Position numbers and translations under genes: made by a program. Positions 3,677-28,896 of a stretch of DNA of 64,000 nt are shown here, piece after piece. Where the stretch lies: positions 1 to 64,000 of IMG/VR virus record IMGVR_UViG_3300025418_000839; one strand, 5' to 3'. This stretch comes from a virus. Below the pieces are notes generated by a model, which saw only the letters and a program-made list of their open reading frames with translations, was not told the DNA's origin and made no database searches. Position 1 is the stretch's first letter, and every line of letters begins with the position of its first letter.

Positions 3677-3679
3677 TAT

Positions 3680-4763: not shown

Positions 4764-4764
4764 T

Positions 4765-5001: not shown

Positions 5002-5005
5002 TCGA

Positions 5006-6694: not shown

Positions 6695-6717
6695 TCTGCT
6701 CCTATCTAATATTATAC

Positions 6718-6746
6718 ATTATAGCATTAACACAGTTTTGGGTCAA
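6718..6746 (-). promoter_or_regulatory. sigma70-type promoter of the ligase operon
   Basis: Minus strand: TTGACC (6746-6741), 17-nt spacer, TATAAT (6723-6718), inside the 3' end of the DUF1281-like gene. A second TATAAT occurs 7 bp downstream. Confidence 0.75.
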
Positions 6747-8163: not shown

Positions 8164-8164
8164 A

Positions 8165-8506: not shown

Positions 8507-8507
8507 C

Positions 8508-8738
8508 TTAGAAATGTGGGTCCATGTATTCATGTTTACCTGGCATCAAGTAGCAATACTTACAACCAGTTTGGGTGTAATATACAGTACCATCTTTAGC
8601 TACTTTACGGGTATATTGACGACCAGTTTCAGTAAAAATAAAACGCTTGGTCATACGCACAATTTTACCATCATAGTAACGATCACCGCCAATACCGTGG
8701 CTAACATCATCACCAATTTTGTATTCTACTTGTGTCAT
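8508..8738 (-). CDS. small hypothetical, SH3-like
   Basis: 76 aa (IGDDVSHGIGGDRYYDGKIV…) with the pattern of a small beta-barrel (SH3/KOW-like) protein. First gene after the promoter cassette at 8768-8796, with SD AAGGAG. Function unknown. Confidence 0.7.
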   Translation of the reverse strand: MTQVEYKIGDDVSHGIGGDRYYDGKIVRMTKRFIFTETGRQYTRKVAKDGTVYYTQTGCKYCYLMPGKHEYMDPHF

Positions 8739-8767
8739 ATCTGCTCCTTATTAGTTACTATACAAGT

Positions 8768-8796
8768 ATTATACTATTTTGGCAATTTGGACACAA
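8768..8796 (-). promoter_or_regulatory. repeated promoter cassette, copy 1
   Basis: Minus strand: TTGTGT (8796-8791), 17 nt, TATAAT (8773-8768). The stretch from the spacer to the SD is nearly identical to copies at 17317-17345, 17537-17565 and 32550-32578. Confidence 0.75.
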
Positions 8797-8810
8797 CCAA
8801 AATTTACCCC

Positions 8811-8836
8811 GTAAAAAACCCCCATTTAAGGGGGTT
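8811..8836 (-). terminator. intrinsic terminator
   Basis: AACCCCC-ttaaat-GGGGGTT followed by a T run on the minus strand, 28 bp after the stop of the 8865-9179 gene. Confidence 0.8.
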
Positions 8837-8864
8837 AAAATGTGTGGCTTTTTTACAACAGAGA

Positions 8865-9179
8865 TTATTGTCCGTAACTTGAGTCCCATGTTAGGGTAGA
8901 GTCTGCCATATATCTTTCTTGGAATGTTAGATATTCTGCATCTTGTTCAACATCACTGTTGAACGTTATGGTTCTACTGTGCGGGTTATTTCTAGTAATT
9001 GTCACATTACCAGCACTTGCTGCATTTGCCCAGATTGCTCGCTGACGTGTGTGAGCTTGCGTAAAAGTTATAAACTCTTCAGCAGAAAGAGTCTCCTGTG
9101 CCCACGTATCTATACTTATCGGGGTCGAAACTCCGTCGATAATTTTTGTTGGGTCAGTAAATGTAGCGGTTATTGCCAT
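8865..9179 (-). CDS. hypothetical, probably late-expressed
   Basis: 104 aa. It contains RTITFNSDVEQDAEYLTFQERYM; a similar TITFNQD string occurs in the plus-strand protein at 17641. SD AAAGGA, a GATAAATA late-type element 26 bp upstream and a terminator downstream make it a monocistronic, probably late gene. Possibly a minor virion protein. Confidence 0.7.
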   Translation of the reverse strand: MAITATFTDPTKIIDGVSTPISIDTWAQETLSAEEFITFTQAHTRQRAIWANAASAGNVTITRNNPHSRTITFNSDVEQDAEYLTFQERYMADSTLTWDSSYGQ

Positions 9180-9204
9180 AACGTAATCCTTTATGATATA
9201 GTAT

Positions 9205-9212
9205 TATTTATC
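9205..9212 (-). promoter_or_regulatory. T4-type late promoter (GATAAATA)
   Basis: Minus-strand GATAAATA immediately after the tmRNA terminator and 26 bp before the ATG at 9179. Confidence 0.55.
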
Positions 9213-9215
9213 ATA

Positions 9216-9239
9216 CTAAACCCGCCGAAGCGGGTTTAG
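9216..9239 (-). terminator. terminator of the tmRNA gene
   Basis: Perfect 10-bp stem (minus strand CTAAACCCGC-ttcg-GCGGGTTTAG) with a stable UUCG loop, directly after the tmRNA coding piece. Confidence 0.8.
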
Positions 9240-9484
9240 GTTATTTTCTGTTACGAGGTATAACTACCCTAGGCGCTGTTAGGCTGCCAATGCGAACTGT
9301 TCGTCGTTTGCGTTTACGTTATTTGCTTTTTACGTCTACTCCTGACGTGTTGCCTTTGTCGCTATCTCACCATGTCGAAACCAAATACGGGCCCACCGAA
9401 ATATACTACACAATACACTTCGGTGGACCCGCCGGGGGTCGAACCCGGGTCCACAATGCCTTTGCTAGAAAGGAATTACAACAA
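9240..9484 (-). ncRNA. ssrA: circularly permuted (two-piece) tmRNA
   Basis: Trans-translation RNA. On the minus strand the acceptor part comes first: T arm CCGGG-TTCGACC-CCCGG (9448-9432), acceptor strand CGGGTCC (9431-9425), discriminator A (9424) and CC. A 26-nt spacer follows (9420-9395), then the 5' end of the coding piece GGGCCCG (9394-9388), which pairs over 7 bp with the acceptor strand and gives a G3-U70 wobble, the alanyl-tRNA synthetase identity element. Five bases later comes GGTTTCGACA, the tmRNA D-loop signature. A small stem ACGTC/GACGT (PK1-like) precedes the tag frame ANDEQFALAA-stop (9311-9279); the resume codon may be GTA at 9317 or GCA at 9311. The mature 5' end of the acceptor piece and helix P2 were not resolved. 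Confidence 0.92.
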
Positions 9485-9616
9485 TTACTTGACTGCTTCT
9501 GTGTGCTTGTGCTTCAAGCTCTTCTTTAGCAGTTTAAACCAAAATTTCTTAACTTTATCAAGGTTATGCTCGATTTCGGCCTTGTAAAGTTTACGAACTA
9601 ATTTTTCAACTTTCAT
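9485..9616 (-). CDS. 43-aa basic peptide upstream of tmRNA
   Basis: MKVEKLVRKLYKAEIEHNLD… with 13 Lys in 43 residues. The strong SD AAGGAGG lies 5 bp before the ATG at 9616 and the promoter at 9636-9664 lies 20 bp upstream. Its stop (9487-9485) is just before the tmRNA acceptor region, so both are on one transcript. Helical, possibly RNA-binding; not recognised. Confidence 0.7.
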   Translation of the reverse strand: MKVEKLVRKLYKAEIEHNLDKVKKFWFKLLKKSLKHKHTEAVK

Positions 9617-9635
9617 ACAGCCTCCTTAAAAGTTA

Positions 9636-9664
9636 ATTATACATTATTTATTGAATTTGGTCAA
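9636..9664 (-). promoter_or_regulatory. sigma70-type promoter of the tmRNA transcript
   Basis: Minus strand: TTGACC (9664-9659), 17 nt, TATAAT (9641-9636). It overlaps the end of the oxygenase gene at 9648. Confidence 0.8.
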
Positions 9665-10451
9665 CGGTATTTGCGTGTTTTGGACGAGTAACAAACTTTT
9701 GTCGAACTGATTCAAATAATTCATATTCTTCTGGAGTGATAACCGCCGAATCAATTTCTTTGCGAACAGCCTGATGAAATTCAAATAGTTGCTGGATGTC
9801 TGCTTCGTACTTAAAGTATTTGGTAATGTGTTTAGTATCATAAGCATCCATAATTAAATGAAATCTATCTTCATTTGAATCATTGCGTATTTGATGCCAA
9901 TCATTGACCCATACCATATACGCATTTCCCGGTTCCATATATAGGTCGGTTCCGTGCATAATAAATTTGCACTTTTCGTTAGTTATCAAAGGTATATGAA
10001 GTCTGGCCATATATTCGTGATCGCCAGAGTCTTTGTGTACTAAACTCTTTGCGCCAGCTTTTAAACAGGTTACACGAGCACGTCTCGGTGTTAGGCCAAA
10101 TGCTTCTATTTGATCAATGACTTTTGCGAACTCGCCAACACAGGCCTGAGTTGGTTTATCATGTTCGGTACTCATAGCAATACCAAAAAACTTTAGTGTT
10201 TTATAGTTATTAGCGTTCTTAGGAAAAAATATTTCTAATTCTTTGCCTTCATCGTTTTGAAAATAATCCCAACCGTCACGCCAATCGCCAGTACGAGAAG
10301 TAACGGACCAACCACCAAAGCCATGGTATGCAGGTGTTTCGTATTCTTCGCCTTGAATAACCTGTTGTCCCAATGGAAATATATGTTCCTTAAGATCCTG
10401 TACTAACTTACTATGATCGAATGTGACCATATCTAATTTTTCATAAAACAT
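9648..10451 (-). CDS. aspartyl/asparaginyl beta-hydroxylase-like 2OG oxygenase
   Basis: 267 aa. The double-stranded beta-helix iron site is HKD (His139, Asp141) with distal His186 (NDWHQIRN) and Arg196 (EDRFHLIMD) for 2-oxoglutarate, the Asp_Arg_Hydrox layout. It probably hydroxylates a protein or amino-acid side chain using Fe(II), O2 and 2OG. Last of four successive oxygenase-like genes in one operon; overlaps the previous gene by 11 bp. Confidence 0.75.
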   Translation of the reverse strand: MFYEKLDMVTFDHSKLVQDLKEHIFPLGQQVIQGEEYETPAYHGFGGWSVTSRTGDWRDGWDYFQNDEGKELEIFFPKNANNYKTLKFFGIAMSTEHDKPTQACVGEFAKVIDQIEAFGLTPRRARVTCLKAGAKSLVHKDSGDHEYMARLHIPLITNEKCKFIMHGTDLYMEPGNAYMVWVNDWHQIRNDSNEDRFHLIMDAYDTKHITKYFKYEADIQQLFEFHQAVRKEIDSAVITPEEYELFESVRQKFVTRPKHANTVDQIQ

Positions 10452-10983
10452 TTTGAATATCCTTGATCATTTCTTTTACTTCATCAAAACTGTATTTGTT
10501 AGTTGCCAATTGTAACACTTCTCGTACCGGTTTGTCAAAGTCATCGATTGACACTTCGTGTATTACCTTGTTGTCTATTAGATAAATGTCATACGGATCA
10601 GCATTAAATGTTCCCAACAGAGTCAACGATTCTTTAGAGTATATATGCCCTTCTCCGTGATCAGCATACTCAATCCCTCCAATACCCAAGTTGTTGGCAT
10701 ACATGTTGGTAGAATATCCGGCTGGTTGTACGTAGCAATTAAGTCCAGCAGTTTCTACTATGTCAGTGTGCGGCGGTATGTTATCATTTATAACTAATAA
10801 ACTAGAATAAAAATCACCGTGTACTTCCTTGGGTAATAAATTATACAATGTTTCCAATATTGTACTTGCTACATCATAGTATCTAATACCATAGAATTTG
10901 TCTGCTGGTCTGGTAGCAAACTCTATTTGCTTTTTTAAAACAGTTATAAGACCACTAGGTGCTTGACCAACGTACTTAAACAT
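10441..10983 (-). CDS. putative 2OG-Fe(II) oxygenase
   Basis: 180 aa. Shows PPHTDIV (His72, Asp74), His142 (VIHEVS) and Arg154 (PVREVLQLA), in the order expected for an Fe(II)/2OG dioxygenase. It shares layout and C-terminal helix (…VKEMIKDI) with the next upstream gene (…VYAMLNDYG), suggesting tandem duplication. Substrate unknown. Confidence 0.65.
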   Translation of the reverse strand: MFKYVGQAPSGLITVLKKQIEFATRPADKFYGIRYYDVASTILETLYNLLPKEVHGDFYSSLLVINDNIPPHTDIVETAGLNCYVQPAGYSTNMYANNLGIGGIEYADHGEGHIYSKESLTLLGTFNADPYDIYLIDNKVIHEVSIDDFDKPVREVLQLATNKYSFDEVKEMIKDIQNVL

Positions 10984-11524
10984 CTAACAGTCCGTAATCA
11001 TTGAGCATAGCGTAAACTTCTGCATAGGTCATGTCAGTACTGAGATTAAGAACAAATCTAGGATTGTCTGCTGATAATTCATCTACACTATGTATTGCTG
11101 TGGTGTCTAGTAGGTAAACATCGCCTGGATGCGCTATAAACTGCTCTTCGAAGTTTAAGTTAGTTGGCTTCATACTACATGCACACTCGCCGGCAGTAAA
11201 CTTTTCAAAGTTACAACCGTTGCAGTCTTTGGCTAACTCTTTGTAGTCACCAGAATAAAATCTAGTAGTGGCGTTATTTTCTGAAAGATAAATGTTGATC
11301 TTACACTGGATGCCTTGGTCTCTGTGCGGCACAATGCGACCACGCATGGCCAAATGTGTTAGAAAGAATCTCTGCTGATACTCTGGCGGTATAATGATAC
11401 TGCTGTCGAGATCTACATATGAATAGGTGGATAAAGTACCGGCGCAGATATATTGAGTACCAAGTAGTTTAAAGTTTTCATATTTGGCAGGGTCAATTGA
11501 TTTTAAACGAGCATGGTACTTCAT
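10976..11524 (-). CDS. putative 2OG-Fe(II) oxygenase with Cys cluster
   Basis: 182 aa. VPHRDQG (His67, Asp69), His145 (AIHSVD) and Arg156 (PRFVLNLS) form a plausible iron/2OG site. It has an inserted Cys cluster, C101, C104, C114 and C116 (CNGC…CACS), that could bind a metal. Overlaps both neighbours by a few bases, so translation is coupled. Confidence 0.65.
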   Translation of the reverse strand: MKYHARLKSIDPAKYENFKLLGTQYICAGTLSTYSYVDLDSSIIIPPEYQQRFFLTHLAMRGRIVPHRDQGIQCKINIYLSENNATTRFYSGDYKELAKDCNGCNFEKFTAGECACSMKPTNLNFEEQFIAHPGDVYLLDTTAIHSVDELSADNPRFVLNLSTDMTYAEVYAMLNDYGLLDV

Positions 11525-13581: not shown

Positions 13582-14300
13582 AGTATAGTATTTATCTTGA
13601 TCAAATTAAGAAACTCTAGTATTTTTATATAGCACCATCCTAGGTCAATTTCAAACCAACGTTTAGCAAAATTTGCACAGGCCGGAAACTCGTGATGATT
13701 ATTGTGCAGTTCTTCACCACAGCCTAGTAGTCCCAAAGGTAAAACATTTGTACTGGTATCGGGCCTATCATAGTTCCTGTAACCAATTTTGTGCCCAAAT
13801 CCAGTGATAGTGGCATTTACAAACAGACTCACGGAAAACATGTGCACCAGCCAGGCCACAATACCTAGCCAGCCAAATAAACCAATGTTTATTGTTAGTA
13901 GTATTAACAGGCCTAATTTTGTATGGCAGTAGACATTCTTTTCTAACCAATTCTCTTTAAAATCACGACTGAAGTGTGCGGTTTCCCAATCGGTATTCCA
14001 ATATTGGTATTCTCTAAAAAAGTTAGGTATTAAACAATGTCCAGTGACCCGCCAAAAACCAGATAATAACGGACTATGCGGATCACCGTGTACATCGGTA
14101 AACATATGATGTATTCGATGTTGGGCAATAAATGGCTTGGGATAGATTCCCTCGGTTATCCAGAACAAAAAACGGAATACATGCTCGACTATAGGATACT
14201 TGATTGTATACTGCCGATGTATCAAGTATCTATGCAGATATATCGATGTTAATACTATACCAAGATGTGCTGTACATATAGTATATACAACAACGTCCAT
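13578..14300 (-). CDS. acyl-lipid/acyl-CoA desaturase
   Basis: 240 aa membrane di-iron enzyme. The three histidine boxes are HRYLIH (23-28), HRIHH (61-65) and HNNHH (199-203), with four hydrophobic segments, as in delta-9-type desaturases. It would introduce a double bond in membrane fatty acids, with electrons from the host. A second copy with the same layout is at 41153. It sits between the radical SAM and Cys-repeat genes with one-base and four-base overlaps. Confidence 0.9.
   Translation of the reverse strand: MDVVVYTICTAHLGIVLTSIYLHRYLIHRQYTIKYPIVEHVFRFLFWITEGIYPKPFIAQHRIHHMFTDVHGDPHSPLLSGFWRVTGHCLIPNFFREYQYWNTDWETAHFSRDFKENWLEKNVYCHTKLGLLILLTINIGLFGWLGIVAWLVHMFSVSLFVNATITGFGHKIGYRNYDRPDTSTNVLPLGLLGCGEELHNNHHEFPACANFAKRWFEIDLGWCYIKILEFLNLIKINTIL
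13589..13596 (-). promoter_or_regulatory. possible late promoter (GATAAATA)
   Basis: Minus-strand GATAAATA seven bases before the ATG at 13581, inside the last codons of the desaturase. It could give a nearly leaderless late mRNA for the Cys-repeat protein, or be chance. Confidence 0.4.
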
Positions 14301-15748
14301 TATGCGCTTTCTACGCGGCTTTTCCCATAAACTTCAACATCATCGATGGTACCAATTTTTTCTGCTACCACTTTAATAGGAATAATCTTCTTAACGGCCT
14401 TTTCCTTGTGTTCGTAGATAGTGCCAAAAATATCCTGGCGTTCTAATGGTAGTGCATCATTTTTAATCAGTGTAGGAATATAACCCGTTATTTTTTCTAT
14501 AGCTAGGGCAAAAAGAGCCACATTGTCTGAATAAGCATTGGCACAAGATATTTCCCAAAACTTATTGTCTAAGAACATACAAGCACCCTTACAGACATGC
14601 AACACTGGGCAACTGGGGCATTCTGCACGATTTGACCAATGTGTTGAAGTTTTGATTGCTACATTATCATAGTCATCTAATGTACCGCCTAGGTGACTTT
14701 CACCGTTTTTGCTGGTTTCTACTGCTGAGACGTTTTGACAGGTTATCACATTGCCACGCAGGTCCACAGCGATTGCACGTTGATCATCCATGCCACATTT
14801 TTGTCCTAGGGTATCTGCTTCTTGGTGTGTTAGTACACTTTTAATAAATCCGTCAATCTTACCTAATTGTCCGGTAAATCCAATACGACCTTGGGTTGAA
14901 AAAATATCCGCAAATGCAGTACGTCTAAAATCAAAATGTTCTTCTAGGGTTTGTAGACTGTTGCTCATACCCTCTTCGTCATAAGCATCAACAATAGAAC
15001 CTTCACCTAACTGTATGTCGGGATTTCCTGTTAGTTCTACAAACCAATCATAAATTGCCTTACGGCTTTTATTTTTAGCATGCAACATGGGGTTGAAACT
15101 GATGCCTTTTTTCAATCGACTCATCATGCGATAAAAACCTAATAGTCTTTTCTTTTGGTCTGGATCATCAAACGGATCTGGTCCGCGAACTGACTGCCCA
15201 GGACCGTCATGTGAGATACTAACTGAAAAATTTAGTGCCATTAACCAATCAATCATTTCGTCGGTTAGAATACTACCGTTGGTAATAACAGAAAATAATG
15301 GTTTACGTTTCCAGTCTTTAAATCTTTCTAATAGTGCTTCAGCTAGGGGTTTGAAAGTTTTCCAATAGACAAATGGCTCACCTCCCCAAAACTCTACCTT
15401 AAGTCCATCTTCTTCACTGAACTCTAATACATCCAATTTGGCAAGAAAAGCATCAATATCTTTCTTACTAGTTTCTGGAGCACGCTCTACAAATTTTTGT
15501 GAACAGTAATCACAGGTGTAGTTACAACTCAGTCCAAGTTGAATTTTTAATAGTTGAATGCCGCGGGATTTTTTAAGAGGACGGTCGCGGTCGAAAGGTA
15601 TATAAGGTTCTAGTCCCTCTATCTTGTATGAACCCTTTGGATATTCGTACAAGTTACCTTGTTCGTCTTTGAGTGTATTGGCTTGATTGTCGTAATAAAA
15701 AATACGTTTATCGTCGGTGCTGCGTTCAGCATGAATTTCAAATAGCAT
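14300..15748 (-). CDS. radical SAM/SPASM enzyme (anSME-like)
   Basis: 482 aa. The radical SAM cluster is CNYTCDYC (Cys75, 79, 82); WGGEPF follows, and the C-terminal SPASM-type region has further Cys (KCGMDD, TCQNVS, CPSCPVLHVCKGACMF, SCANAYSDN) for auxiliary 4Fe-4S clusters. The order resembles anaerobic sulfatase-maturating and peptide-modifying enzymes. A peptide or protein substrate is expected; the nearby Cys-repeat protein is a candidate. The start ATG at 15748 begins the operon. Confidence 0.88.
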   Translation of the reverse strand: MLFEIHAERSTDDKRIFYYDNQANTLKDEQGNLYEYPKGSYKIEGLEPYIPFDRDRPLKKSRGIQLLKIQLGLSCNYTCDYCSQKFVERAPETSKKDIDAFLAKLDVLEFSEEDGLKVEFWGGEPFVYWKTFKPLAEALLERFKDWKRKPLFSVITNGSILTDEMIDWLMALNFSVSISHDGPGQSVRGPDPFDDPDQKKRLLGFYRMMSRLKKGISFNPMLHAKNKSRKAIYDWFVELTGNPDIQLGEGSIVDAYDEEGMSNSLQTLEEHFDFRRTAFADIFSTQGRIGFTGQLGKIDGFIKSVLTHQEADTLGQKCGMDDQRAIAVDLRGNVITCQNVSAVETSKNGESHLGGTLDDYDNVAIKTSTHWSNRAECPSCPVLHVCKGACMFLDNKFWEISCANAYSDNVALFALAIEKITGYIPTLIKNDALPLERQDIFGTIYEHKEKAVKKIIPIKVVAEKIGTIDDVEVYGKSRVESA

Positions 15749-17640: not shown

Positions 17641-18228
17641 ATGAACGCTACAATTAGCACAGTTAGAACTCGTCCAAATACTGATACTCCATTTTTTGCC
17701 AATACAGCGGTTAGATCGTTGTTAGATTCATTGGTTACTGCTGGAAGTGTTACCATTAACAGCGGAGATACTTCAGGCCTATCATATACAGAAGATAAAA
17801 TCTTTAACAATGTATCAGATTTAGAAACCTATTTAAATCTACAAGAAGGACTACAGATAAAGTCCGATTATCGAGATTTTATTTCTGCTAATCCTGGATA
17901 CAACACCTCTAAAACCATTACTTTTAACCAAGACGGTGCATCATCAATTACAGCCAATGTTGCTGTAACCTATTCTTTTGCTAGCGGCACAAATGTAAAT
18001 TTTTTAATATTAAATTTAGTTTATGATAACACAGAAGTTGCGTCAGACCCAATAGTCACCGATACATCATTGGTTCGATACTTTGAATGGTCATCCAATT
18101 CTAGTTCACTGGCTGTTGGATTCGATTCTTCCGTCCTTAATTATTTTATTACTGATTCCTCAATAGCAAAACAATTAATCTCAAACGGGATAGATAGACA
18201 AATTACATTAAATGTAACATCCAGTTAA
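17641..18228 (+). CDS. hypothetical, probably virion-associated
   Basis: 195 aa, Ser/Thr/Asn-rich beta-type sequence with no Cys. KTITFNQDGASSITANVAVT resembles a TITFNSD stretch in the 8865-9179 protein. A late-type promoter precedes it and a bidirectional hairpin follows. Composition and expression suggest a virion component; family not recognised. Confidence 0.65.
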   Translation: MNATISTVRTRPNTDTPFFANTAVRSLLDSLVTAGSVTINSGDTSGLSYTEDKIFNNVSDLETYLNLQEGLQIKSDYRDFISANPGYNTSKTITFNQDGASSITANVAVTYSFASGTNVNFLILNLVYDNTEVASDPIVTDTSLVRYFEWSSNSSSLAVGFDSSVLNYFITDSSIAKQLISNGIDRQITLNVTSS

Positions 18229-18260: not shown

Positions 18261-18283
18261 AAAACCCGCCTAGTGCGGGTTTT
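18261..18283. terminator. bidirectional terminator
   Basis: AAAACCCGC-ctagt-GCGGGTTTT between convergent genes (17641-18228 plus, 18289-18888 minus); T runs in both directions. Confidence 0.8.
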
Positions 18284-18288
18284 GTGTT

Positions 18289-18888
18289 TTATACAGATTC
18301 GTTAGTGCGCTGATATTCCGAAGCTCGACCGTCAAGGCTAACATGCCAAGCATAGAATTTGGTATTGGGGTACTCCTTCTTTAGGGCCACAAAAGACTCT
18401 AAATTAGGAACAGCATCATCATACATGATGGCTTTGCTATAAGGATGTTTCTTTAACAGTTCGCTGATGATGAGTTGTTTCTTGGTTTCTGTGGGTATAC
18501 GATCTTTGATGTTACCCGCACGATACACGTGTACACGACTCATATCTATACCATACTTACGGAAGGTATCCAAGAACAGCTCACGGTCATTGAAATCTTC
18601 GCGTGCCGTGACCATGACCACTTTGTTGCCGGTATTGATGTCCTGTTTGAGTTGATTGATCATTGGTATGATTGGACGTGCTTTTTCAAAGAATTCGCGT
18701 GCATCACGGAAGTCGCCAAAGTCAAATGATTCTCCAGGCTGTAGTTTATAGTGTGTGAATTCGTGGCTGTTGAGACTTTTAACAACTCGACCGCCTTTGA
18801 TCACGTGTACCTTGGTCTGAGTATGAACCAGAGTATCATCAATATCAAAGATCACCAGTTTTGTTGGCTGTATTTCTTGAGCTCTCAT
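18289..18888 (-). CDS. HAD-superfamily phosphatase with CTS-like N-terminus
   Basis: 199 aa. HAD motif I FDIDDTLVHT (nucleophile Asp15, Asp17), motif II VMVTARE and motif III/IV region AIMYDDAVPN. The arrangement resembles polynucleotide-kinase 3'-phosphatase/acid-phosphatase HADs. The N-terminus MRAQEIQPT resembles those of the other three operon products and T4 capsid-targeting peptides. Last gene of the amidoligase operon, with an ATGA overlap. Substrate unknown. Confidence 0.8.
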   Translation of the reverse strand: MRAQEIQPTKLVIFDIDDTLVHTQTKVHVIKGGRVVKSLNSHEFTHYKLQPGESFDFGDFRDAREFFEKARPIIPMINQLKQDINTGNKVVMVTAREDFNDRELFLDTFRKYGIDMSRVHVYRAGNIKDRIPTETKKQLIISELLKKHPYSKAIMYDDAVPNLESFVALKKEYPNTKFYAWHVSLDGRASEYQRTNESV

Positions 18889-20333
18889 CTGGCGCTCGCT
18901 ACAAAACGCAGGTCTCTACTGATAGAGCCTAGTTCCCGTTTCATCTTAGGACCAGCCCGTTTTACCGTGGCACGATCCACATGTGTATCGGGTTCGTCTT
19001 CGGGATCAGCTGATACATTTACTGGTTCATCGGTACGTGTATCAAAGCCGTGTATGTTTATCTCTTTACCGTAGCGACGTTGTAATTCTTGCCACACACG
19101 ATAGCCACCTTCGCTTTGTTTGTAGTCGCTTACCAGTGTTAAGCCGCGATTTAAAATCAAAAAAGCGTACAGGTCTGCGGCTCGGTAACGATTCTTAGGT
19201 CCGGAATAAACACCGTGTATGACAAAGCTGTCACGGTTTGTAGAGTAAGGACGGCCTGTAGTGCCAAGTTGGCAACGACGTGTTTCGGTATCAAAAACAT
19301 AGTAAGTAACGGTACCGTGGCTGGTCCATGACCATAGTTGAAAACCATCGCCCATTTCTGCTACTAGATCGCCAAGGTAGTCCGACTCTTCGCCTCGCGG
19401 TATAGGCCGACCTTCGTTGGGCATGACATCCAGGTGTTCACGTTTGCGTTTAACAATGGTAGGAACTTTGGTTATTTCCATGATACCTGTGCTACGGCGT
19501 AAGCGTAGATCAAAGTCTCGATCACTTTCGTACTTCTGGATATACTGTTCATAATAACGACGTGCTTGCTCAGGCGTATCAGCTTCAAAGCGATCCACTA
19601 TCTGGTTACTACCAGCAGGGCGATCAGCATGGTAAATTTCATAGCCTCGGTTGAGACGATCACGCACACGAGCCATGTGATCCATGCGACGACTAACGTG
19701 TTGATCAGCACGGTCAAGATAACTGCGTCTTAATTCGTCGCTGATTTCATCAACTCGATCTTCCCATACTTGTTTTTGTCCACGATTCTTTTGCCAAAAA
19801 TACTGACCAGCCGGAGTTTGTTCTGAGCTACGACGGATTTGATAACCCAACTCTTTGGCCCAGTCATACATGACGGCCGCAATGCCCTGGCCGCGAACAT
19901 CGGGGTTGACTGATGTATCAAAACTTTCAATATTTTGGCCTGTGCGATCAAAGTGTGCGGCAGCTATTTCTTTGCCACCACGATCATAAGCATATATGCT
20001 GATGCCTTTGTCATCTGATCGGGCTTCTAAATCTAACCCACCTCTGTGTGCTCGAACACTTTGGATTGTTTCGTATATGTCATCATACAAATCACCATCA
20101 AACTCATCGTCACTGATCACATACTCTTGACCTGCGCGATTTTTGAGTTGGACATAATCATAATCCACCTGTTGAATAGTCCAGCCCAACGCGGCCAATT
20201 CTTGGGCATACTCCGCTTGTTTGTCGCCACCATTCCACCATAGGTTGGCCAACCGATGCAGATGTGGAGGAACCGCGTCTCCGTCGGAGTCGTCTCTAGG
20301 ATTTGCGGTAGGAGCAAATTCTAAGAATCTCAT
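18885..20333 (-). CDS. multidomain protein with GNAT acetyltransferase core
   Basis: 482 aa from the ATG at 20333 (TAATG overlap with the amidoligase stop); the upstream extension belongs to that gene's frame. A GNAT signature occurs near residues 142-152 (VNPDVRGQGIA, the acetyl-CoA pyrophosphate loop). The flanking ~100-residue N-terminal and ~300-residue C-terminal parts are unassigned, acidic/basic and rich in Tyr/Arg. The start MRFLEFAPT is CTS-like. It probably acetylates or conjugates a product of the neighbouring amidoligase, by analogy only. Confidence 0.7.
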   Translation of the reverse strand: MRFLEFAPTANPRDDSDGDAVPPHLHRLANLWWNGGDKQAEYAQELAALGWTIQQVDYDYVQLKNRAGQEYVISDDEFDGDLYDDIYETIQSVRAHRGGLDLEARSDDKGISIYAYDRGGKEIAAAHFDRTGQNIESFDTSVNPDVRGQGIAAVMYDWAKELGYQIRRSSEQTPAGQYFWQKNRGQKQVWEDRVDEISDELRRSYLDRADQHVSRRMDHMARVRDRLNRGYEIYHADRPAGSNQIVDRFEADTPEQARRYYEQYIQKYESDRDFDLRLRRSTGIMEITKVPTIVKRKREHLDVMPNEGRPIPRGEESDYLGDLVAEMGDGFQLWSWTSHGTVTYYVFDTETRRCQLGTTGRPYSTNRDSFVIHGVYSGPKNRYRAADLYAFLILNRGLTLVSDYKQSEGGYRVWQELQRRYGKEINIHGFDTRTDEPVNVSADPEDEPDTHVDRATVKRAGPKMKRELGSISRDLRFVASAR

Positions 20334-23317
20334 TATGTACTCATCAGTGGACGGCAACTGAACGCACTAGGATCCTCTGCACCAATATCGCGTACATAGC
20401 GTTGTGCGGTCGCCCACGCACTAGTCTGATCGTGATCAGCAAAGGTATGGATAACATGCCCCGAATCACGTTCATATACTTGCCACATAGGAACACCATT
20501 TGGTGCTGTGGCCTGAACAGGATCGCCTGAACGGTATTGTACAAATGCGTCATCGCGACCAGTTAGATCATTAACGTATTGTTTAGCAACAGTAGCAATA
20601 TTTTGTATCTGTGCTGTGTGTCCTGGCATGGTTGGCAAGAACCCATAGATTCTATTGTCACTGCCGCCGCGTACTTCATAGTAGTCTCCGGTAGCAGGAC
20701 GTTGTGTTATAAATCCTTGGGGTGGTTGATTGACCACTGGATTGTGTTCTTGACGATCACGATAGCGTTGTTCACTATCAGCTGTAGGTACAGTACGCAT
20801 ACGAACGCTGTCATCTGGGTGACCGTATCTGCGTACAAGATCTCTACGCACCTCTTCAGCTTGACTGCGTGATGCATTATCTACAGTATCAATTACTGCA
20901 CCAGTTTCGGCACGATAAAATTCCCACTTATGTGGCTCATCCATTATATCCGTGTCTTTGGGTTCAGACTTTGCTCTAACTTCTAAATCGTCGGCGTTTT
21001 CAAAGTCGTGTAATTTAGCAACGTGTTTTAATAGTTCCTGTGCTCGAGTTTTGTCAACTTTAAGGATATTATCAATTACGCGACCAGTTGGAACATAAAC
21101 GACATCCCAGTCTTGTTTTTGTTTATCTGGATCCAAAGGAATTTCTTTGATAGCAAGACGACCTTGTGGTAATTTTTGCTCACGTTCAAACTTACGCATG
21201 GCTTGAACTAAGTTACTCTTACGACCTTCTTGTTCGTAGTGTACTTCACCGGTCTTAGTGTCGTATACCCGCCAGTTTTTAATCTCTTCTTCTGGAGCCG
21301 CTTTAATATTTTTAGCAAGTCGCTCGCGTTTACTCAATGGCTTTTCTGGTTCTTCAGGATCAGCCGGACGTAGATTAAATGCAATGCCTTGGTCAGTCAC
21401 ATACTTGTCGTATACTGCATCAGCGGCTTCGCCTTTGGTTGCATAGCCATGTAGTATTTCTAAAGTTTCGCCGGTATCATTGTTGTATACTTCCCAATCA
21501 CCAGTGGTACTCTTCATTGGTAATACTCGATATTCCTTTTGGAAACCTTCCATACTGCCGCCGGGACTCAGTTTCTTTTTAGCACGTTCCCATACTTCAG
21601 ATTTTGTATAACCGTGATAGTCCTGTCCGATAATATACTTGCCATTGGCATCGTACACTTTCCAGTCGCCCTTGGGCTCCGATTCCAACTGCTTCTCCGC
21701 CCAGGCCTTTTTAAGATCTGTACTTGAAATTTCACCTGTAGCAAAGCGACTAAACAAATCGATTGCAGGATCACCTTCTGGTGGGCTAATGAGCTTGTAT
21801 AACTTCTTGTAGTATTCGTTACGTTCGGCTGCTGGGTTAGCTGCCACAGTCATTGCTTTAGCATAACGCAGGAGTGTGTTCTTTAATTTGTCAATGTCTT
21901 CAAAGTAATTTGAGCCACCAGCTGAGCGGAACTCAATATATTTGGCACCTTTTTCTTTAGCTGGATTAGTTGAGTCTACTCCACCTTTAGGATTGATACT
22001 AGTATATTTGCCAAAGCCATGATTATTAATCTCAAGTGCTTTTTGTGCTAGTTCTAACAAGTTACTACGCATTAGTGTAAGCGCACCGCCGACAGCATCT
22101 GGATTACCTTTGACTCTACCACGAATCTTTTTCATTGCGGCTTCGCAGAAGTGATTACCAGCACGACCAAACTCTTGTAGCACATGCTCATCACCCAAGA
22201 ACAAGGCTAGTTTCACATAGTCAACATCACCGCCACGGTGTGGCAAGCTAACACCCATATGGAAACCGGTTGAACTGTTACTGTAAGCACCATTCTCTTC
22301 AGCCCACTCAAAGAAGTCTTCCATCATGCTCAAACAAGTTTCTAATGGCATCGGAGGACTAACAATCTCCATGGCCATGTTGTCTTCGTCATCTGAGTCA
22401 AGACTTGAGTCAGGTTCAAAAATCCAAGTTTTGTCGTCACGAGTGGCTGAATGGTAACCGCCCGATACTTTGGTCTTAACACCCAAACGTTCGTGTAGAT
22501 CGTCGGCGAGACGTTCAGCTTCATCTTCATTCCAACCGCCGCCACTGCTAGAGCCAGTATAGGTCATAACTGGCCAACTTAAATCAAATTCGTTAGCTAC
22601 ATCACTCATCCAACGTAGACCTACCTCATCAAAGAAACCACTATCATCATCTACATAAAAACTGTCACGGAAATCATCTAGAGCTGAATCGTAGTAGCTG
22701 TCCTGTTTGTTAATACTGGTTTCAACGTCTTCTTCAAGAATTTCTTCTGCGTCACTAACTGCATCAATATAAATTTGGTAGTCGGGGTTTTTTTCAATAT
22801 AGGCTTCTTGTTCTTTAGAGCTGGTAAATTTAGGTGCTGCTTCACCCACAGCCTGAATGCGATCGGCCACTTCATCAGTGAGATCCATACCATCAACAAG
22901 TACAGCATGTACACGTTCATCCATTGGACGTTCATCTAACCATACTTTGCGTATCAAATCTTCCTGTTCATCACGGAAGGCTTCCCACATCTGTTCATCT
23001 TGCCACTCGTAATATTTTTCATCTAAAGATTCACGCAGTCGATCTGCTTGACGTGGAGTTAATCCCCAACCATACTCATCGTTTTCAAAGAATTCTATAA
23101 CTTGATCAAGTGTACGGCAACGTTCATCCGCATCGTAGTCGGGTTCTGGATCTTCGTCATATTCGGGTTCACCGCCTAGGCCTGTAAATACTAGTTCAGC
23201 TTCAAAGCCAGCCATGATGCCTTCAGCTTCCGGGCTCTTAGCAAATTGATTTAGACTCTTAGGATTCATTCTAAGTTCGTCTAATTGTTCCTCGGACAGT
23301 AAGTGTTTATATCGCAT
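20333..23317 (-). CDS. amidoligase with seven C-terminal W-VY/TG repeats
   Basis: 994 aa. Residues ~35-480 fit the amidoligase_2 (COOH-NH2 ligase) family: FEAELVF (38-44), EPDSSL, EIVSPP (317-322), TGFHMGV (350-356) and FCEAAMKKIRG. Such enzymes join a carboxylate to an amine with ATP. From 551 to 994 there are seven repeats of 50-75 residues starting W-VYD---G (near 551, 607, 681, 736, 797, 878, 944), probably a binding array. The N-terminus MRYKHLLSEE resembles a T4 capsid-targeting peptide. It lies 3 bp after a gamma-glutamylcyclotransferase gene, suggesting gamma-glutamyl amide chemistry. Confidence 0.8.
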   Translation of the reverse strand: MRYKHLLSEEQLDELRMNPKSLNQFAKSPEAEGIMAGFEAELVFTGLGGEPEYDEDPEPDYDADERCRTLDQVIEFFENDEYGWGLTPRQADRLRESLDEKYYEWQDEQMWEAFRDEQEDLIRKVWLDERPMDERVHAVLVDGMDLTDEVADRIQAVGEAAPKFTSSKEQEAYIEKNPDYQIYIDAVSDAEEILEEDVETSINKQDSYYDSALDDFRDSFYVDDDSGFFDEVGLRWMSDVANEFDLSWPVMTYTGSSSGGGWNEDEAERLADDLHERLGVKTKVSGGYHSATRDDKTWIFEPDSSLDSDDEDNMAMEIVSPPMPLETCLSMMEDFFEWAEENGAYSNSSTGFHMGVSLPHRGGDVDYVKLALFLGDEHVLQEFGRAGNHFCEAAMKKIRGRVKGNPDAVGGALTLMRSNLLELAQKALEINNHGFGKYTSINPKGGVDSTNPAKEKGAKYIEFRSAGGSNYFEDIDKLKNTLLRYAKAMTVAANPAAERNEYYKKLYKLISPPEGDPAIDLFSRFATGEISSTDLKKAWAEKQLESEPKGDWKVYDANGKYIIGQDYHGYTKSEVWERAKKKLSPGGSMEGFQKEYRVLPMKSTTGDWEVYNNDTGETLEILHGYATKGEAADAVYDKYVTDQGIAFNLRPADPEEPEKPLSKRERLAKNIKAAPEEEIKNWRVYDTKTGEVHYEQEGRKSNLVQAMRKFEREQKLPQGRLAIKEIPLDPDKQKQDWDVVYVPTGRVIDNILKVDKTRAQELLKHVAKLHDFENADDLEVRAKSEPKDTDIMDEPHKWEFYRAETGAVIDTVDNASRSQAEEVRRDLVRRYGHPDDSVRMRTVPTADSEQRYRDRQEHNPVVNQPPQGFITQRPATGDYYEVRGGSDNRIYGFLPTMPGHTAQIQNIATVAKQYVNDLTGRDDAFVQYRSGDPVQATAPNGVPMWQVYERDSGHVIHTFADHDQTSAWATAQRYVRDIGAEDPSAFSCRPLMST

Positions 23318-23320
23318 ATT

Positions 23321-23755
23321 TTAAAATTCTTTTAGAGCACGTTTAATTTGATCCAATGGTAAGTCGTGTTCTTTATATCCTTTGACCATTGCTTGTATGT
23401 ATTTTTCTGTTGGTGCACCCGATAAGCCATTTGTAGGATCCATTACGTAGACCATGCATGTAATCCATCTATCATCAACTTTTACTTCTAACGGAATCCT
23501 GTCATAATTCTTGTGTAGTGCTTCGTGACTATCTAGTACACTAAAATCTCGTTGCCGTACTTTCCAAACTACTCCATAAACATCATTGCCATGACTGCTT
23601 TCGATATTAGCAAATCGATGAAATGTTAATTTAAAGTTTTCTAATTTTCCTACCCCAACTAACTCTGCATCTGGAGCTAAATCATGCAAATGCTCGGATC
23701 TGCTTAAATGTCCATATGAAAAATAATATGCAGATCTTAGTTCGTGTAATCTCAT
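23321..23755 (-). CDS. gamma-glutamylcyclotransferase-like (GGCT/AIG2)
   Basis: 144 aa. It shows the GGCT fold order: YFSYGHLS near the N-terminus, LENFKLTFHRFANI, VYGVVWKV, LDSHEALHKNY with the expected catalytic Glu, and YIQAMVKGYKEHDLP. GGCT enzymes cleave gamma-glutamyl amides, releasing 5-oxoproline. It heads the amidoligase operon, so the pair may make and break the same bond. Starts MRLHELRSA, CTS-like. Late-type element upstream. Confidence 0.8.
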   Translation of the reverse strand: MRLHELRSAYYFSYGHLSRSEHLHDLAPDAELVGVGKLENFKLTFHRFANIESSHGNDVYGVVWKVRQRDFSVLDSHEALHKNYDRIPLEVKVDDRWITCMVYVMDPTNGLSGAPTEKYIQAMVKGYKEHDLPLDQIKRALKEF

Positions 23756-23771: not shown

Positions 23772-23795
23772 TAGGGTAAGTTTTACCTTACCCTA
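23772..23795 (-). terminator. terminator of the nuclease gene
   Basis: 9-bp stem TAGGGTAAG/CTTACCCTA with a 6-nt loop and a TTTTT run on the minus strand. Confidence 0.75.
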
Positions 23796-23823: not shown

Positions 23824-24660
23824 TTAATCGTCTGAAGCGTTAGCACCACACTTAGCACGTTTAGCGTTAGTTAGTGCACCAAAGTCTACTTTCCATTCTT
23901 GTCCTGGCTGTAGCTCTTTAGCACCTGCTGGAATAGCAAATTTCACACCAGCTTGTTGTTCAATCTGTGCAATTGGCATACGGAACTTAGTCAAATCATT
24001 ACCCAAGTTAGGATATGGAGCAACGTGTGGGAACATCCAACCAGCGGCTTCGCCAGTTTGATTGTTAACTACAATCTTGTAGAAAGCGTGTGGAACAACT
24101 ACACCCTTACCAATTGTTTTGTCTTGTTGATTGTAGATACCACCAGCAACTACCCAGTATGATTGGTTACGCTGTACTGCCCAACCACGTACTGAAGTTT
24201 CTAATAGTTTCCAAATACCACGATTTAAACTACCTGCTTGTGGACTCATGTTAGTCATTAAGAATGACTCATACTCTACTTGTGGGTCCCAAGATAAGTC
24301 ACCGTCTGGTGCCATGTGGCCCTTGTCGTAGCCTGTGCCAGCATAGTCAGCTGGAACAGCACCGTTAGGTACAAATTGGTTTGGAGCAAATGCGTTGGTA
24401 CGTGCTACACAACCTAGGGCGTTTTGTGGTAGTAGTTCATACATAACAAAACGTGGTAATTTTGCTGGAGCATCATAACCTACTAGATATGCTTGCTGGC
24501 AAATTGGTTGTACTGCGCCCTGCACTTGTGGGAAGCCATACGGGGCATGTGCCTTACATTGGTCTACTGGAAATGGTGCTCGTTGTGTCCAAGCATTGGC
24601 TGAGGTTGTTACTGTTAAGCCCGCAAATGCTAAGGCTAGAATTGCTAATAATCTTTTCAT
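23824..24660 (-). CDS. secreted DNA/RNA non-specific endonuclease
   Basis: 278 aa from the ATG at 24660 (SD AAGGAG); the frame extends upstream but lacks support. Signal peptide MKRLLAILALAFAGLTV…SANA. The nuclease motif is YDKGHMAPDGD (His115; DKGH instead of the usual DRGH) with downstream TNMSPQAGSLNRGIWKLLE supplying the metal-binding Asn. It should act in the periplasm or outside the cell, for example on incoming phage or environmental DNA. The translation start is under a hairpin (24671-24698). Confidence 0.9.
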   Translation of the reverse strand: MKRLLAILALAFAGLTVTTSANAWTQRAPFPVDQCKAHAPYGFPQVQGAVQPICQQAYLVGYDAPAKLPRFVMYELLPQNALGCVARTNAFAPNQFVPNGAVPADYAGTGYDKGHMAPDGDLSWDPQVEYESFLMTNMSPQAGSLNRGIWKLLETSVRGWAVQRNQSYWVVAGGIYNQQDKTIGKGVVVPHAFYKIVVNNQTGEAAGWMFPHVAPYPNLGNDLTKFRMPIAQIEQQAGVKFAIPAGAKELQPGQEWKVDFGALTNAKRAKCGANASDD

Positions 24661-25702: not shown

Positions 25703-25957
25703 TTACGATTTTGCCGGAATCAGTAACCAGCCTTGTCCGGAATGAGTGTGGTACCAAGAATAAAATGGTGCAGGTATAGTTAAGATGCCATCTTGAGCAA
25801 GATAGTGATATTTTGGTAATATTTCGTAGCCGTTGATGGTTACTGTTTGGTTGACGTCTAAGACAATAGTATCATATAAATTATAGAGTGTTTCTACACC
25901 ATTTACTGATACTGCTAATTGTGCCTTAGTAGCCAGCAGATCTGAGAAGTTCTTCAT
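25703..25957 (-). CDS. small hypothetical, beta-rich
   Basis: 84 aa; WYHTHSGQGWLLIP at the C-terminus resembles small phage proteins of unknown role. Overlaps the downstream part of the radical SAM gene by 32 bp. Confidence 0.65.
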   Translation of the reverse strand: MKNFSDLLATKAQLAVSVNGVETLYNLYDTIVLDVNQTVTINGYEILPKYHYLAQDGILTIPAPFYSWYHTHSGQGWLLIPAKS

Positions 25958-27200
25958 ATTCGGGCAAGTACCTTAGTATACTGTTATTCCTACTGGATTC
26001 TAACAATTTGATATAGTTAACCAAATCAGGTAATCGTTCCGATTCATCTGGTTGATTTTGTAAGTAATCTACGTAACTGCGAGCATCTTGTATAATTTGT
26101 TGTTGAGCAAATGCAGGGTGTCTGGTGTTTATGATCTGTTCTGTTGGTGTATGTTCATATCTATTAATCCAATCAGATAATCTAGCAATCACTTGAGATC
26201 TGACTGACATGGGCAACACGCTGGGTCGCATGAACGCAGGATCGTTTAAGAAATTACAACTTTCAACTGATATATTTCGTTGATAAGCATACTCATAAAC
26301 TGTGGCAAGGTGCCACATGGTAAAGATAGTGGGCGTTGTTCTTAATTGTACTAACCAATTGGAATTTTTAGCAACGTCTAACCACTGTTCCATAATCTCC
26401 AGAGTTTGATCAATGTTGCTACCATACCTAACATAGTCATTTAGGGGATGAATGCATTCAACACTTAACCCAAGATTTACCTGTTCAAACTGTGTGAGTA
26501 AGTCAACTACCGTTTGATCCCATACTGTGAGATTGGTTGTAAATCCCACAGTAATTTTTTTATGTAGATTTTCTTCTACCAAAGTTTCTAGTATGCGTTT
26601 AAATGCTGGAGTAATTAGTGTTTCACCGCCAATGAAATGCAAGTACTTAGTGGTCTTACTTTCTCTTAGAGAATCTAAAAAGAAATTAAATTTTATAGGA
26701 TTCTCGCACCAACTGGCCTGTGGCACTTCATTAATTATTCCTATGCGTTTAAATTCGTTGGCAAGTCTACTGCTACTGTTAGGTTCACAAAAAATACAAG
26801 CACTATTACAAAAATTACCTAGATCAATTTGCCAGTCTTGTGGAGTTAGTGTAGTTTCTGTTTTTTTAAATTCTTCTAGCCAAGGACTACTTAACATGGT
26901 ATTTGTAAAGTCATCTAAACGAATTCCTGTTTTAAGTAGTTGCCGTTGTCGTCCACTTACCTTGCCACGTGCTTCCATTTGATGACATTCTCTGCAAGTG
27001 TCCAATAATTCACCATTGAGTAAACTTTGTCGTATGGATGACATACCCTGCTGAAAAAAGTGTAGTGGTGTTTGCTCCTGTATATCGGGCAAGTTATTCC
27101 GGTCTTGCTTTGTGGCCCAACGACAATATTCGTAATGCCCAGAGTTATTGATCCGCATATGGAACCAAGGACTCGAACAAAATCGATCTTTAAATGTCAT
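25926..27200 (-). CDS. twitch-type radical SAM protein
   Basis: 424 aa. The cluster motif CNSACIFC follows LGNFCN near residue 130 and is preceded by an N-terminal Cys region (FCSSPWFHM…CRECHQM) typical of twitch-domain radical SAM proteins. HFIGGE corresponds to the GGE SAM-binding motif. Reaction unknown. It overlaps clpP by 4 bp; a related enzyme lies on the other side of clpP. Confidence 0.85.
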
Positions 27201-27787
27201 CGTTTGGTAATGATCTCATCAATGAGTCCATAGGCCAATGCTTCTTCAGCACTCATAAAGAAATCACGTTCCATGTCTGCCTCAAACTCGTCGTAGGTTT
27301 TGCCTGCAGAGTTGTGTTTGACGTAAATCTCTGTTAGGTAGCGTTTCATCTTCAAGATTTCTTGCGCTTGAATTTGAATGTCTGTAGCTTGTCCACGTGC
27401 TCCGCCCGATGGTTGATGAATCATATGACGTGCATGCGGTAACATTAGTCGCTTGCCTGCAGCTCCAGCTGTGCTAAGAAGACTTCCCATAGAGCAGGCC
27501 TGACCCATAACAATGGTACTAACATCGGGTTTGATAAACTGCATTGTATCGTAGATAGCCATGCCCGCTGTAACTGAACCGCCGGGACTATTAATGTAGA
27601 ATAGTATGTCTGCATCAGGATTTTCGCTTTCTAAGAATAATAACTGTGCTACCAACAAACTGGCAGAGTGTTCATTGACATCGGTATCTAACATGACAAT
27701 ACGGTCCTTGAGTAGTCGACTGTAAATGTCATAAGCACGTTCGCCATTGGCTGTTTTTTCTAATACTGTTGGTACAAAGTTTGGCAT
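27197..27787 (-). CDS. clpP: ATP-dependent Clp protease proteolytic subunit
   Basis: 196 aa, full-length ClpP. Catalytic triad: Ser99 (GQACSMGS), His124 (HMIHQPSGG) and Asp175 (MERDFFMSA); INSPGGSV forms the oxyanion strand. It forms tetradecameric chambers with host ClpA/ClpX. A phage ClpP could alter turnover of host or tmRNA-tagged proteins. Flanked and overlapped by two radical SAM genes. Confidence 0.97.
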
Positions 27788-28896
27788 TTTTCACCTAATA
27801 GTTGATATAATTCTGTAAATGTTTTGGCAAAGTTTTGTGATCTTTGCTTGTCTAATATTGTAACATATTTTATTGTAGTGTCAAGTAAGTGACTGTCATC
27901 TCTTGCCCACATGGCCTGTACAATAGGTTCCAATTGTTTGTGTGTTTCAAATTTTTGTTCAATTGCCTTTTTAGTATCGGTTGGTAAAACTGTAATATTG
28001 TAGTAATCGGGGCGACTTACTAGACCCATATATGGTTCTGGTAAATTATTTTTGGCGCACCAATCTAAAAACTCGGGTAAGTAATAAACAGTGAACACGC
28101 TAACGCTATGACTAATACTTAATTGTATATTTGTGTTTTTTTCACGTAACTCTAAATACTTTTTAGTATTCATCAATACTGTCGACCATTCTGCTGGCCA
28201 ACGATTATATTCAAACTGTTCTCCAAAACCGTCCAAACTAAGTTGTATATCAATCTTTTTAAACTTCTCCCATGTACTTAAGATTGTGCTGCTGGGAAAT
28301 TTAGTACCATTTGTTATATAGTGTAAGCTGATATTTTCAGGGAAATAATTTGACAATTCCGTTAAGAATTTACTATGAAGTTCTTGATCGGCGTAGAATG
28401 GTTCGCCACCAGGAAACTCTACATGTTTGATTGTTTTTATTCTGTCAACCAGATCTTTTAAAAATTTAGGGTCTTGATAAAATTTACTGTGCTGATTAAT
28501 CACAATGTCGGGAAAATGATGTTTAAGTTTACGTTCTTCAACTGCCCAGCGACTACTTGAATAGCTATTACAAATTCTACAGGCAAGATTACAAGTGTTA
28601 CCAAAAGGTATACTTAATACCTTAATACCATCAAAATTTGGTATTTGATCTTCAAAAGTGTATTTGTTGTCTAGAGTGCGTTTACTAGGTAGACCAGCAT
28701 CTTCGTCGCGCCAGCACCTAATGCACCCAGCAGGTTTCTTGCCGGCTTTAAATTCGGCTTTTAGCTCAGCCAACTCTGTACTATTTTCGTAATCATGTAG
28801 ATTAGTAGCAATACTAGTTGAGTATTTACAACAGGGTTTAAATTCACCCTGGGGGCTAATATCCAATCCTACCCAAGGATGGTAACACATTTTCAT
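27760..28896 (-). CDS. twitch-type radical SAM protein
   Basis: 378 aa. CNLACRIC (after FGNT, near residue 104) binds the 4Fe-4S cluster; FPGGEPF is the GGE motif; the N-terminal [16 protein letters not shown] and CIRCWRDE form an additional Cys region. Related to 25926-27200 but clearly divergent. Its 3' end overlaps clpP by 28 bp. The ATG is six bases after a TATAAT box, hence possibly leaderless. Confidence 0.85.

What the first reader, a model, noticed from the sequence alone, without database searches (positions are those of the whole stretch)
18289..23755. Amidoligase, gamma-glutamylcyclotransferase, GNAT and HAD operon
Four genes joined by 4-bp or shorter overlaps encode a bond-forming amidoligase, an enzyme that cleaves gamma-glutamyl amides, a GNAT-domain protein and a HAD phosphatase. 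Amidoligase families are predicted to make peptide modifications or tags. This could be an unreported phage peptide-modification pathway acting on virion, host wall or small molecules.
Basis: partly seen in the sequence, partly recalled or inferred. Interest (0 to 1): 0.85.

Follow-up and report, generated by a model that had tools for sequence, protein, structure and literature searches.

The report
Jumbo-phage enzymes with capsid-targeting-like leaders
Four neighbouring genes of a giant freshwater phage encode enzymes that all begin with the same short peptide, a look-alike of the label T4 uses to load proteins into its head, so they are probably shipped inside the virus particle and injected into the bacterium rather than forming one chemical pathway.

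Summary
The four genes are real, and two annotations are solid: amidoligase (PF12224, active-site residues kept, predicted glutamine-synthetase fold) and gamma-glutamylcyclotransferase (PF06094). GNAT and HAD are weaker. They form one apparent transcription unit in a T4-superfamily jumbo phage whose near-complete relatives are 354-374 kb. The "pathway" reading fails a survey: among 76 related amidoligase loci, GGCT and this HAD each occur once; neighbours are swapped for unrelated enzymes. What stays constant is the N-terminus. All four start M-R-x-x-[E/H]-[F/I/L]. In the amidoligase islands 129 of 566 non-redundant gene starts carry this leader against 7 of 3656 internal methionines, across about 28 unrelated clusters. 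Most leaders continue into [L/I/V]-x-E, the gp21 prohead-protease site. Relatives encode an S77 prohead protease and a capsid protein with the same type of site. A related Agrobacterium jumbo phage carries its amidoligase inside a mass-spectrometry-defined virion gene cluster, and a family encoded beside these cargo genes is a detected virion protein in phage CBB. Best reading: head-packaged, probably injected enzyme cargo with a T4-type capsid-targeting leader. Virion location of the window's own four proteins, and the amidoligase substrate, are inferred; in the window only the amidoligase keeps the full cleavage site.

The parts
23321..23755 (-). GGCT / AIG2-like protein, 144 aa; leader MRLHELRSA before the domain
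   Evidence: PF06094 E=5.8e-14, over cut-off, domain from residue 11; phrog_2520 E=7e-20; catalytic Glu region LDSHEALHKNY
20333..23317 (-). Amidoligase, 994 aa: leader MRYKHLLSE|E, glutamine-synthetase-fold core (about residues 17-510), C-terminal ~50-aa repeats
   Evidence: PF12224 E=1.7e-6; 40-sequence alignment A3 with invariant E39 E41 E301 D303 S305 E317 T350 H353 K369 R385 E462 R464; AF2 model pLDDT 80, VIA Z up to 12.6 to glutamine synthetases
23291..23317 (-). leader of the amidoligase, MRYKHLLSE, with an [LI]-x-E cleavage-like site
   Evidence: relatives MRYKELLSE|Q, MRALEFLNE|T and others; residues 1-11 are the disordered start of the model
23729..23755 (-). leader-like extension of GGCT, MRLHELRSA (no E at position 9)
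   Evidence: PWM score p=0.006 against internal Met
18885..20333 (-). GNAT-domain protein, 482 aa: leader MRFLEFAPT, GNAT domain, a W/Y..G..v repeat like those of the amidoligase, conserved C-terminal domain (18888-19460)
   Evidence: GNAT below cut-off, E=0.0012; the C-terminal domain is also found on a deaminase-like protein and others in relatives
20307..20333 (-). leader-like extension of the GNAT protein, MRFLEFAPT (no E at position 9)
   Evidence: same MRFLEFAP start in L006; PWM p=0.006
18289..18888 (-). HAD phosphatase, 199 aa, leader MRAQEIQPT then KLVIFDIDDT
   Evidence: phrog_415 polynucleotide kinase E=1.7e-11; 49% identical homolog in L202 with its own leader MRLLEVKQG
18862..18888 (-). 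leader-like extension of the HAD, MRAQEIQPT (no E at position 9)
   Evidence: PWM p=0.0008; leader positions also kept in the L202 homolog
23772..23795 (-). hairpin with T tail between the upstream nuclease and the GGCT gene; a GATAAATA box (one mismatch to the T4 late promoter) lies at 23804-23797
   Evidence: scan counts do not exceed shuffles, so weak
18261..18283 (+). hairpin terminator between the end of the HAD gene and the convergent gene at 17641-18228
   Evidence: likewise weak as a scan result

Best explanation
The genes encode head cargo of a T4-superfamily jumbo phage. Each enzyme starts with a short leader, M-[R/K]-x-x-[E/D]-[F/I/L], usually followed by [L/I/V]-x-E. It works like the T4 capsid-targeting sequence (IPIII: MKTYQEFIAE|A): it binds the enzyme to the prohead core, and the gp21-type S77 protease cuts after the Glu where that site is present. 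The enzymes stay in the head and are ejected with the DNA. In the host the amidoligase, a glutamine-synthetase-fold ligase, would use ATP to join a carboxylate to an amine on a still unknown substrate, probably with GGCT acting on related gamma-glutamyl bonds; the GNAT and HAD proteins act independently. Shown here: shared leader, its statistical excess, protease-like site, S77 protease in relatives, swapped partners, intact amidoligase active site. Inferred: packaging, cleavage and ejection of the window's four proteins, and the substrate.
For: Leader excess in amidoligase islands: 129/566 non-redundant starts against 7/3656 internal Met; given M[RK], 125/213 against 7/443, so a K/R bias from ATGA overlaps cannot explain it. 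About 28 unrelated clusters carry it. 101 of 144 distinct leaders have [LIVFM]-x-E ending at residues 8-14, against 98/851 other starts. Same slots, different enzymes, same leader. Relatives G009, G010 and G011 have S77 prohead protease (E about 1e-25) and capsid protein KMLAE|NASAGATQAGN; small leader proteins repeat that junction (MKIREIME|NASAGSTGSGA). T4: ipII/ipIII MKTYQEFIAE|A, gp24 MAKINELLRE|S, gp23 SFLTE|AE. CTS biology: PMC9026906. Atu_ph07: amidoligase is CDS 196 by my count, inside virion-rich cluster CDS 170-215, two genes before the portal; N-terminal LxE in 32/137 cluster genes against 16/227 outside, p=1.2e-5. CBB: the g104 family matches CBB_298 (E=8e-15) and the next gene CBB_299 starts MRFSQITE|D; both were detected in CBB virions.
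Against: No virion proteomics exists for this phage. In the window only the amidoligase has E at position 9; GGCT, GNAT and HAD have only the first half of the motif, with modest individual scores. In Atu_ph07 the strict M[RK]..[EDH][FILMVY] form is not enriched in virion clusters (6/137 against 6/227, p=0.27); only the LxE test is. I could not read the supplementary table naming the Atu_ph07 virion proteins, so CDS 196 itself is unconfirmed. The window's record is a fragment in which no head protease or portal was found. The PWM training set includes the amidoligase's own relatives.
Confidence: 0.68

Rival explanations
1. One reading: the four enzymes form one peptide-modification pathway in which the amidoligase adds an amino acid or peptide, GGCT removes or cyclises it, and GNAT and HAD tailor the product.
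For: Amidoligase-GGCT fusion in L231; amidoligase and GGCT close together in C. clostridioforme prophages; gene order and spacing in the window; a HAD near the amidoligase in several loci, of two families.
Against: GGCT and the window HAD each in 1 of 76 loci; slots filled by GIY-YIG, GP88, NMNAT-like, cell-wall hydrolase, nucleotidyltransferase and others. An amidoligase-GGCT pair alone remains plausible.
Confidence: 0.12
2. The leader is an address or docking peptide for something other than the head core, for example a replication complex or another assembly platform; the proteins act late in the producing cell.
For: Several leader genes lie beside the replicative helicase gene; many leaders, including three in the window, lack the cleavage residue.
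Against: The site matches T4 gp21 specificity and the phage's own capsid protein; helicase-adjacent neighbours are virion proteins in CBB.
Confidence: 0.15
3. The N-terminal likeness is an artefact of overlapping start codons and gene calling, and the operon is ordinary accessory metabolism.
For: ATGA overlaps favour K/R at residue 2.
Against: After conditioning on K/R at residue 2 the E5-[FILMV]6 pair is still 59% against 1.6%; leader kept in diverged HAD homologs with different intervening residues.
Confidence: 0.04

Closest known systems
T4 internal proteins IPI-III and Alt with capsid-targeting sequences, processed by gp21
   Same: 10-20-residue N-terminal leader, basic residue 2, acidic-hydrophobic core, [LI]-x-E cut site; unrelated cargo behind one leader; T4-type head genes in the near-complete relatives
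   Different: one residue shorter between K/R and E; cargo here are many enzymes (amidoligase, GGCT, GNAT, HAD, nucleotidyltransferases and more); packaging not shown
Polyvalent effectors and head-packaged ARTs (Iyer et al. 2017; PMC9503650)
   Same: virion-associated multidomain enzymes predicted to be injected; relatives here reach 2560 aa
   Different: here mostly separate genes unified by a short leader, with no fusion to MuF or portal; an amidoligase as cargo was not reported in the text I could search
Phage amidoligases of LUZ24-like, tf, UFV-P2 and phiEco32 (Iyer et al. 2009)
   Same: PF12224-type ligase
   Different: there with GATase, ATP-grasp and COOH-NH2 ligase among early genes; here with a leader, C-terminal repeats or an N-terminal nucleotidyltransferase, and changing partners
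Amidoligase + GGCT genes of C. clostridioforme prophages (PMC11318856)
   Same: phage amidoligase (phrog_2443) near GGCT (phrog_2520)
   Different: temperate phages of a Gram-positive host; leaders not examined

Membership tests
Amidoligase_2 (PF12224) | profile score over the curated cut-off | tested here: met
   28.6 bits against 22; also in four relatives and Atu_ph07
Amidoligase_2 (PF12224) | conserved active-site Glu, Asp, His, Arg residues | tested here: met
   invariant in 40 sequences; their catalytic role is taken from family knowledge
Amidoligase_2 (PF12224) | glutamine-synthetase-like ligase fold | tested here: met
   Z 12.6, rmsd 3.8 over 202 residues, the listed rows are glutamine synthetases; Foldseek E only 0.02
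GGACT / AIG2-like (PF06094) | profile score over cut-off, YGxL motif and catalytic Glu | tested here: met
   53.1 bits against 22.8; YGHL and LDSHEALHKNY
GNAT acetyltransferase | profile score over cut-off | tested here: inconclusive
   19.6 bits against 27; RGQGIA motif present
HAD phosphatase / PNKP-like | DxDxT motif and profile match | tested here: inconclusive
   DIDDT present; Pfam matches below cut-off, phrog_415 E=1.7e-11
T4-type capsid-targeting sequence | short N-terminal leader shared by unrelated proteins | tested here: met
T4-type capsid-targeting sequence | [LI]-x-E prohead-protease site after the leader | tested here: inconclusive
   101/144 leaders in the family, but only the amidoligase among the window's four
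T4-type capsid-targeting sequence | S77 prohead protease encoded by the phage | tested here: inconclusive
   present in three near-complete relatives; not found in the window's own incomplete record
T4-type capsid-targeting sequence | protein found inside the head, leader removed | not testable with these tools
   needs virion proteomics

The most novel reading that the evidence does not exclude
A large group of T4-superfamily jumbo phages uses one readable N-terminal label, M-[R/K]-x-x-[E/D]-[F/I/L]-[L/I/V]-x-E, to load dozens of unrelated enzymes into the head and inject them, including a glutamine-synthetase-fold amidoligase that would be the first injected bond-forming protein-modifying ligase of this kind; the label would let the injected proteome of uncultured phages be read from sequence.
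Probability: 0.5. Interest if true: 0.83.

Novelty: new variant of a known kind. Interest (0 to 1): 0.69.

Why it matters
Most jumbo-phage genes have no assigned role. A short leader that marks head cargo would turn many orphan genes into testable injected effectors, explain why unrelated enzymes sit side by side in swappable islands, and point to the amidoligase as an early host-modifying enzyme. It also makes a long-standing question directly testable: which proteins, besides DNA, giant phages deliver at infection.

Tried and rejected
Four-gene pathway: rejected as a unit by the neighbourhood survey. AF2 model of the conserved C-terminal domain of the GNAT protein was too poor to use (pLDDT 55), so its fold is open. 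T4 portal and S77 protease searches in the window's record and partial relatives found nothing; near-complete relatives supplied the protease. tblastn of the C-terminal domain and of g104 in annotated phages found nothing. PDB sequence search with the amidoligase profile gave only one weak hit outside the ligase family (9r2o, E=0.007). T4 late-promoter scan: consensus boxes before portal and some head genes of relatives and before one G009 amidoligase, but only a one-mismatch box before the window operon; not used as evidence. XacN1 virion enzymes: the lipase and M23 peptidase start without the leader (chitinase not checked); too few for a test. Supplementary tables of the Atu_ph07 and RaK2 papers could not be opened.

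Full report
What is there. The four ORFs exist at the stated coordinates on the minus strand. The order of transcription is GGCT, amidoligase, GNAT protein, HAD. Junctions are a 3-nt gap, a 1-nt overlap and a 4-nt overlap. Hairpins with T tails lie on both sides (23795-23772 and 18261-18283), so the genes probably form one unit, separate from a predicted secreted nuclease upstream (PF01223, E=7e-40) and a convergent gene downstream; the scan itself does not exceed shuffles. Amidoligase_2 and GGACT score over their Pfam cut-offs; GNAT and HAD do not, although their motifs are readable. The window belongs to a 128,884-base IMG/VR record with T4-type replication proteins.

The amidoligase. A family profile reaches 76 loci on contigs up to 364 kb. 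An alignment of 40 sequences keeps E39, E41, E301, D303, S305, E317, T350, H353, K369, R385, E462 and R464. The predicted structure (pLDDT 80) superposes on glutamine synthetases at Z about 12 over about 200 residues, the fold expected of COOH-NH2 ligases. Residues 1-11, the leader, are the disordered start of the model. Many relatives (1389-2560 aa) carry an N-terminal polymerase-beta-type nucleotidyltransferase fused in front, which matches 39 of the 76 loci. One relative fuses an amidoligase to a GGACT domain (L231). The C-terminal ~50-aa repeats of the window protein vary in copy number between close relatives.

The partners are swapped. In L006 the flanking slots hold a 151-aa protein and a short DGNHR-motif protein; in L007 and L008 a 5'-nucleotidase-like HAD fused to a DGNHR-motif domain, and in L007 a nucleotidyltransferase; elsewhere GNAT proteins, GIY-YIG, GP88, NMNAT-like, DUF6267 ligase-like and cell-wall hydrolase proteins. 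Among 76 loci GGCT and the window HAD each occur once, GNAT domains 13 times, Dps-like proteins 16 times (the window HAD homolog in L202 is 49% identical). A conserved four-enzyme pathway is therefore unlikely, while an amidoligase-GGCT link has some support.

The constant feature is the leader. The four window proteins begin MRLHELRSA, MRYKHLLSE, MRFLEFAPT and MRAQEIQPT; in GGCT and HAD this lies in front of the domain boundary (GGACT match from residue 11). In the amidoligase islands 129 of 566 non-redundant gene starts match M[RK]xx[EDH][FILMVY], against 7 of 3656 internal methionines. Conditioning on K/R at residue 2, to remove the bias of ATGA overlaps, leaves 125/213 against 7/443. Single-linkage clustering puts the leader proteins in 28 unrelated groups. 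In L202 nearly all genes from 3104 to 11247 carry it. The consensus over 144 distinct leaders is M-[R/K]-[A/I/L]-x-E-[F/I]-[L/V/I]-x-E, and 101 have [LIVFM]-x-E ending at residues 8-14, against 98 of 851 other starts.

Why this looks like capsid targeting. T4 sends IPII and IPIII into its prohead with MKTYQEFIAE, cut after the Glu by gp21, whose rule is [L/I]-x-E; residues 4 and 7 carry targeting and 8 and 10 processing, and a variant that blocks cutting is still targeted (PMC9026906; sequences read). gp24 starts MAKINELLRE, close to the leader MKINEVIQE found in this genome. Near-complete relatives (354, 374, 357 kb) have a T4-type head cassette with an S77 protease and a capsid protein with KMLAE|NASAGATQAGN; small leader proteins repeat this junction, for example MKIREIME|NASAGSTGSGA.

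Contact with experiment, through relatives. Atu_ph07 has 131 virion proteins by mass spectrometry, mostly in CDS 31-76, 170-215 and 284-329 (PMC6102473). Counting features, its amidoligase (MRWQDISS...) is CDS 196, two before the portal, CDS 198. CDS 31-76 contains an array starting MRWEQLTE, MKWHQLTE and so on; the first member has a zeta-toxin kinase domain and others look like ADP-ribosyltransferases by eye. LxE near the N-terminus is enriched in the three clusters (32/137 against 16/227, p=1.2e-5), although the stricter leader pattern is not (6/137 against 6/227). In phage CBB, the homolog of g104 (G000 77498-78193, MRLSEM...) is CBB_298 (profile E=8e-15) and the next gene, CBB_299, starts MRFSQITE|D; both are in the published virion list (PMC5259590). 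In relatives such as L033 the cargo genes run on into the g104/g103 homologs, and the g103 family keeps the full leader in nearly all of 68 homologs.

Limits. No virion data exist for this phage. Three of the window's four leaders lack the cleavage residue, so packaging of GGCT, GNAT and HAD is less certain than for the amidoligase. Ejection is inferred from T4. The amidoligase substrate is unknown; my working guess is a gamma-glutamyl or isopeptide adduct on a host macromolecule early in infection. The literature check covered open PMC papers only.

Noticed in passing
window 47981-51314: Sequences resembling a curli system by eye: CsgG-like protein (50256-51314), curlin-like repeat protein (49286-50212), FecR-like protein (47981-48961), conserved in relatives.
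   Followed up: no
G001 113560-115062, G003 4523-6019; TctC-like genes in L007 15215-16195 and L008 14713-15687: Relatives encode TctA-like membrane proteins and several TctC/Bug-type periplasmic receptors, seemingly a phage-borne tricarboxylate transporter set (by eye only).
   Followed up: no
window 14300-15748, 25926-27200, 27760-28896: Three radical-SAM/SPASM-like proteins in one phage window; the first two match PF04055; the function of the set is unclear.
   Followed up: no
window 9188-9513: tmRNA gene with tag ANDEQFALAA in a phage genome that also carries ClpP (27197-27787).
   Followed up: no
L253:39484-50592 (Atu_ph07): Array of about ten paralogous ~255-aa proteins with leader M[RK]WxQLTE and R-S-E-like motifs suggesting ADP-ribosyltransferases, plus a zeta-toxin-domain protein; a candidate array of injected phage effectors.
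   Followed up: partly
L240:8792-9004, L042:8906-9109, L225:93-1211, CBB_293: Proteins, mostly ~50-96 aa, whose sequence after the leader mimics the mature N-terminus of the major capsid protein (E|NASAG-T-AG).
   Followed up: partly
L041:2978-3412, L231:4506-4946, L225:3775-4215: Dps/ferritin-like proteins recur in these cargo islands (16 of 76 loci), possibly packaged with the DNA.
   Followed up: no
window 23824-24660: Endonuclease_NS with a signal-peptide-like start sits directly upstream of the operon and is present in 11 of 76 related loci.
   Followed up: partly
window 59916-60308: Another leader-like start, MRASEILRK, on a 130-aa protein of unknown function; a homolog with the same start exists in G009 (238410-238811).
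   Followed up: no
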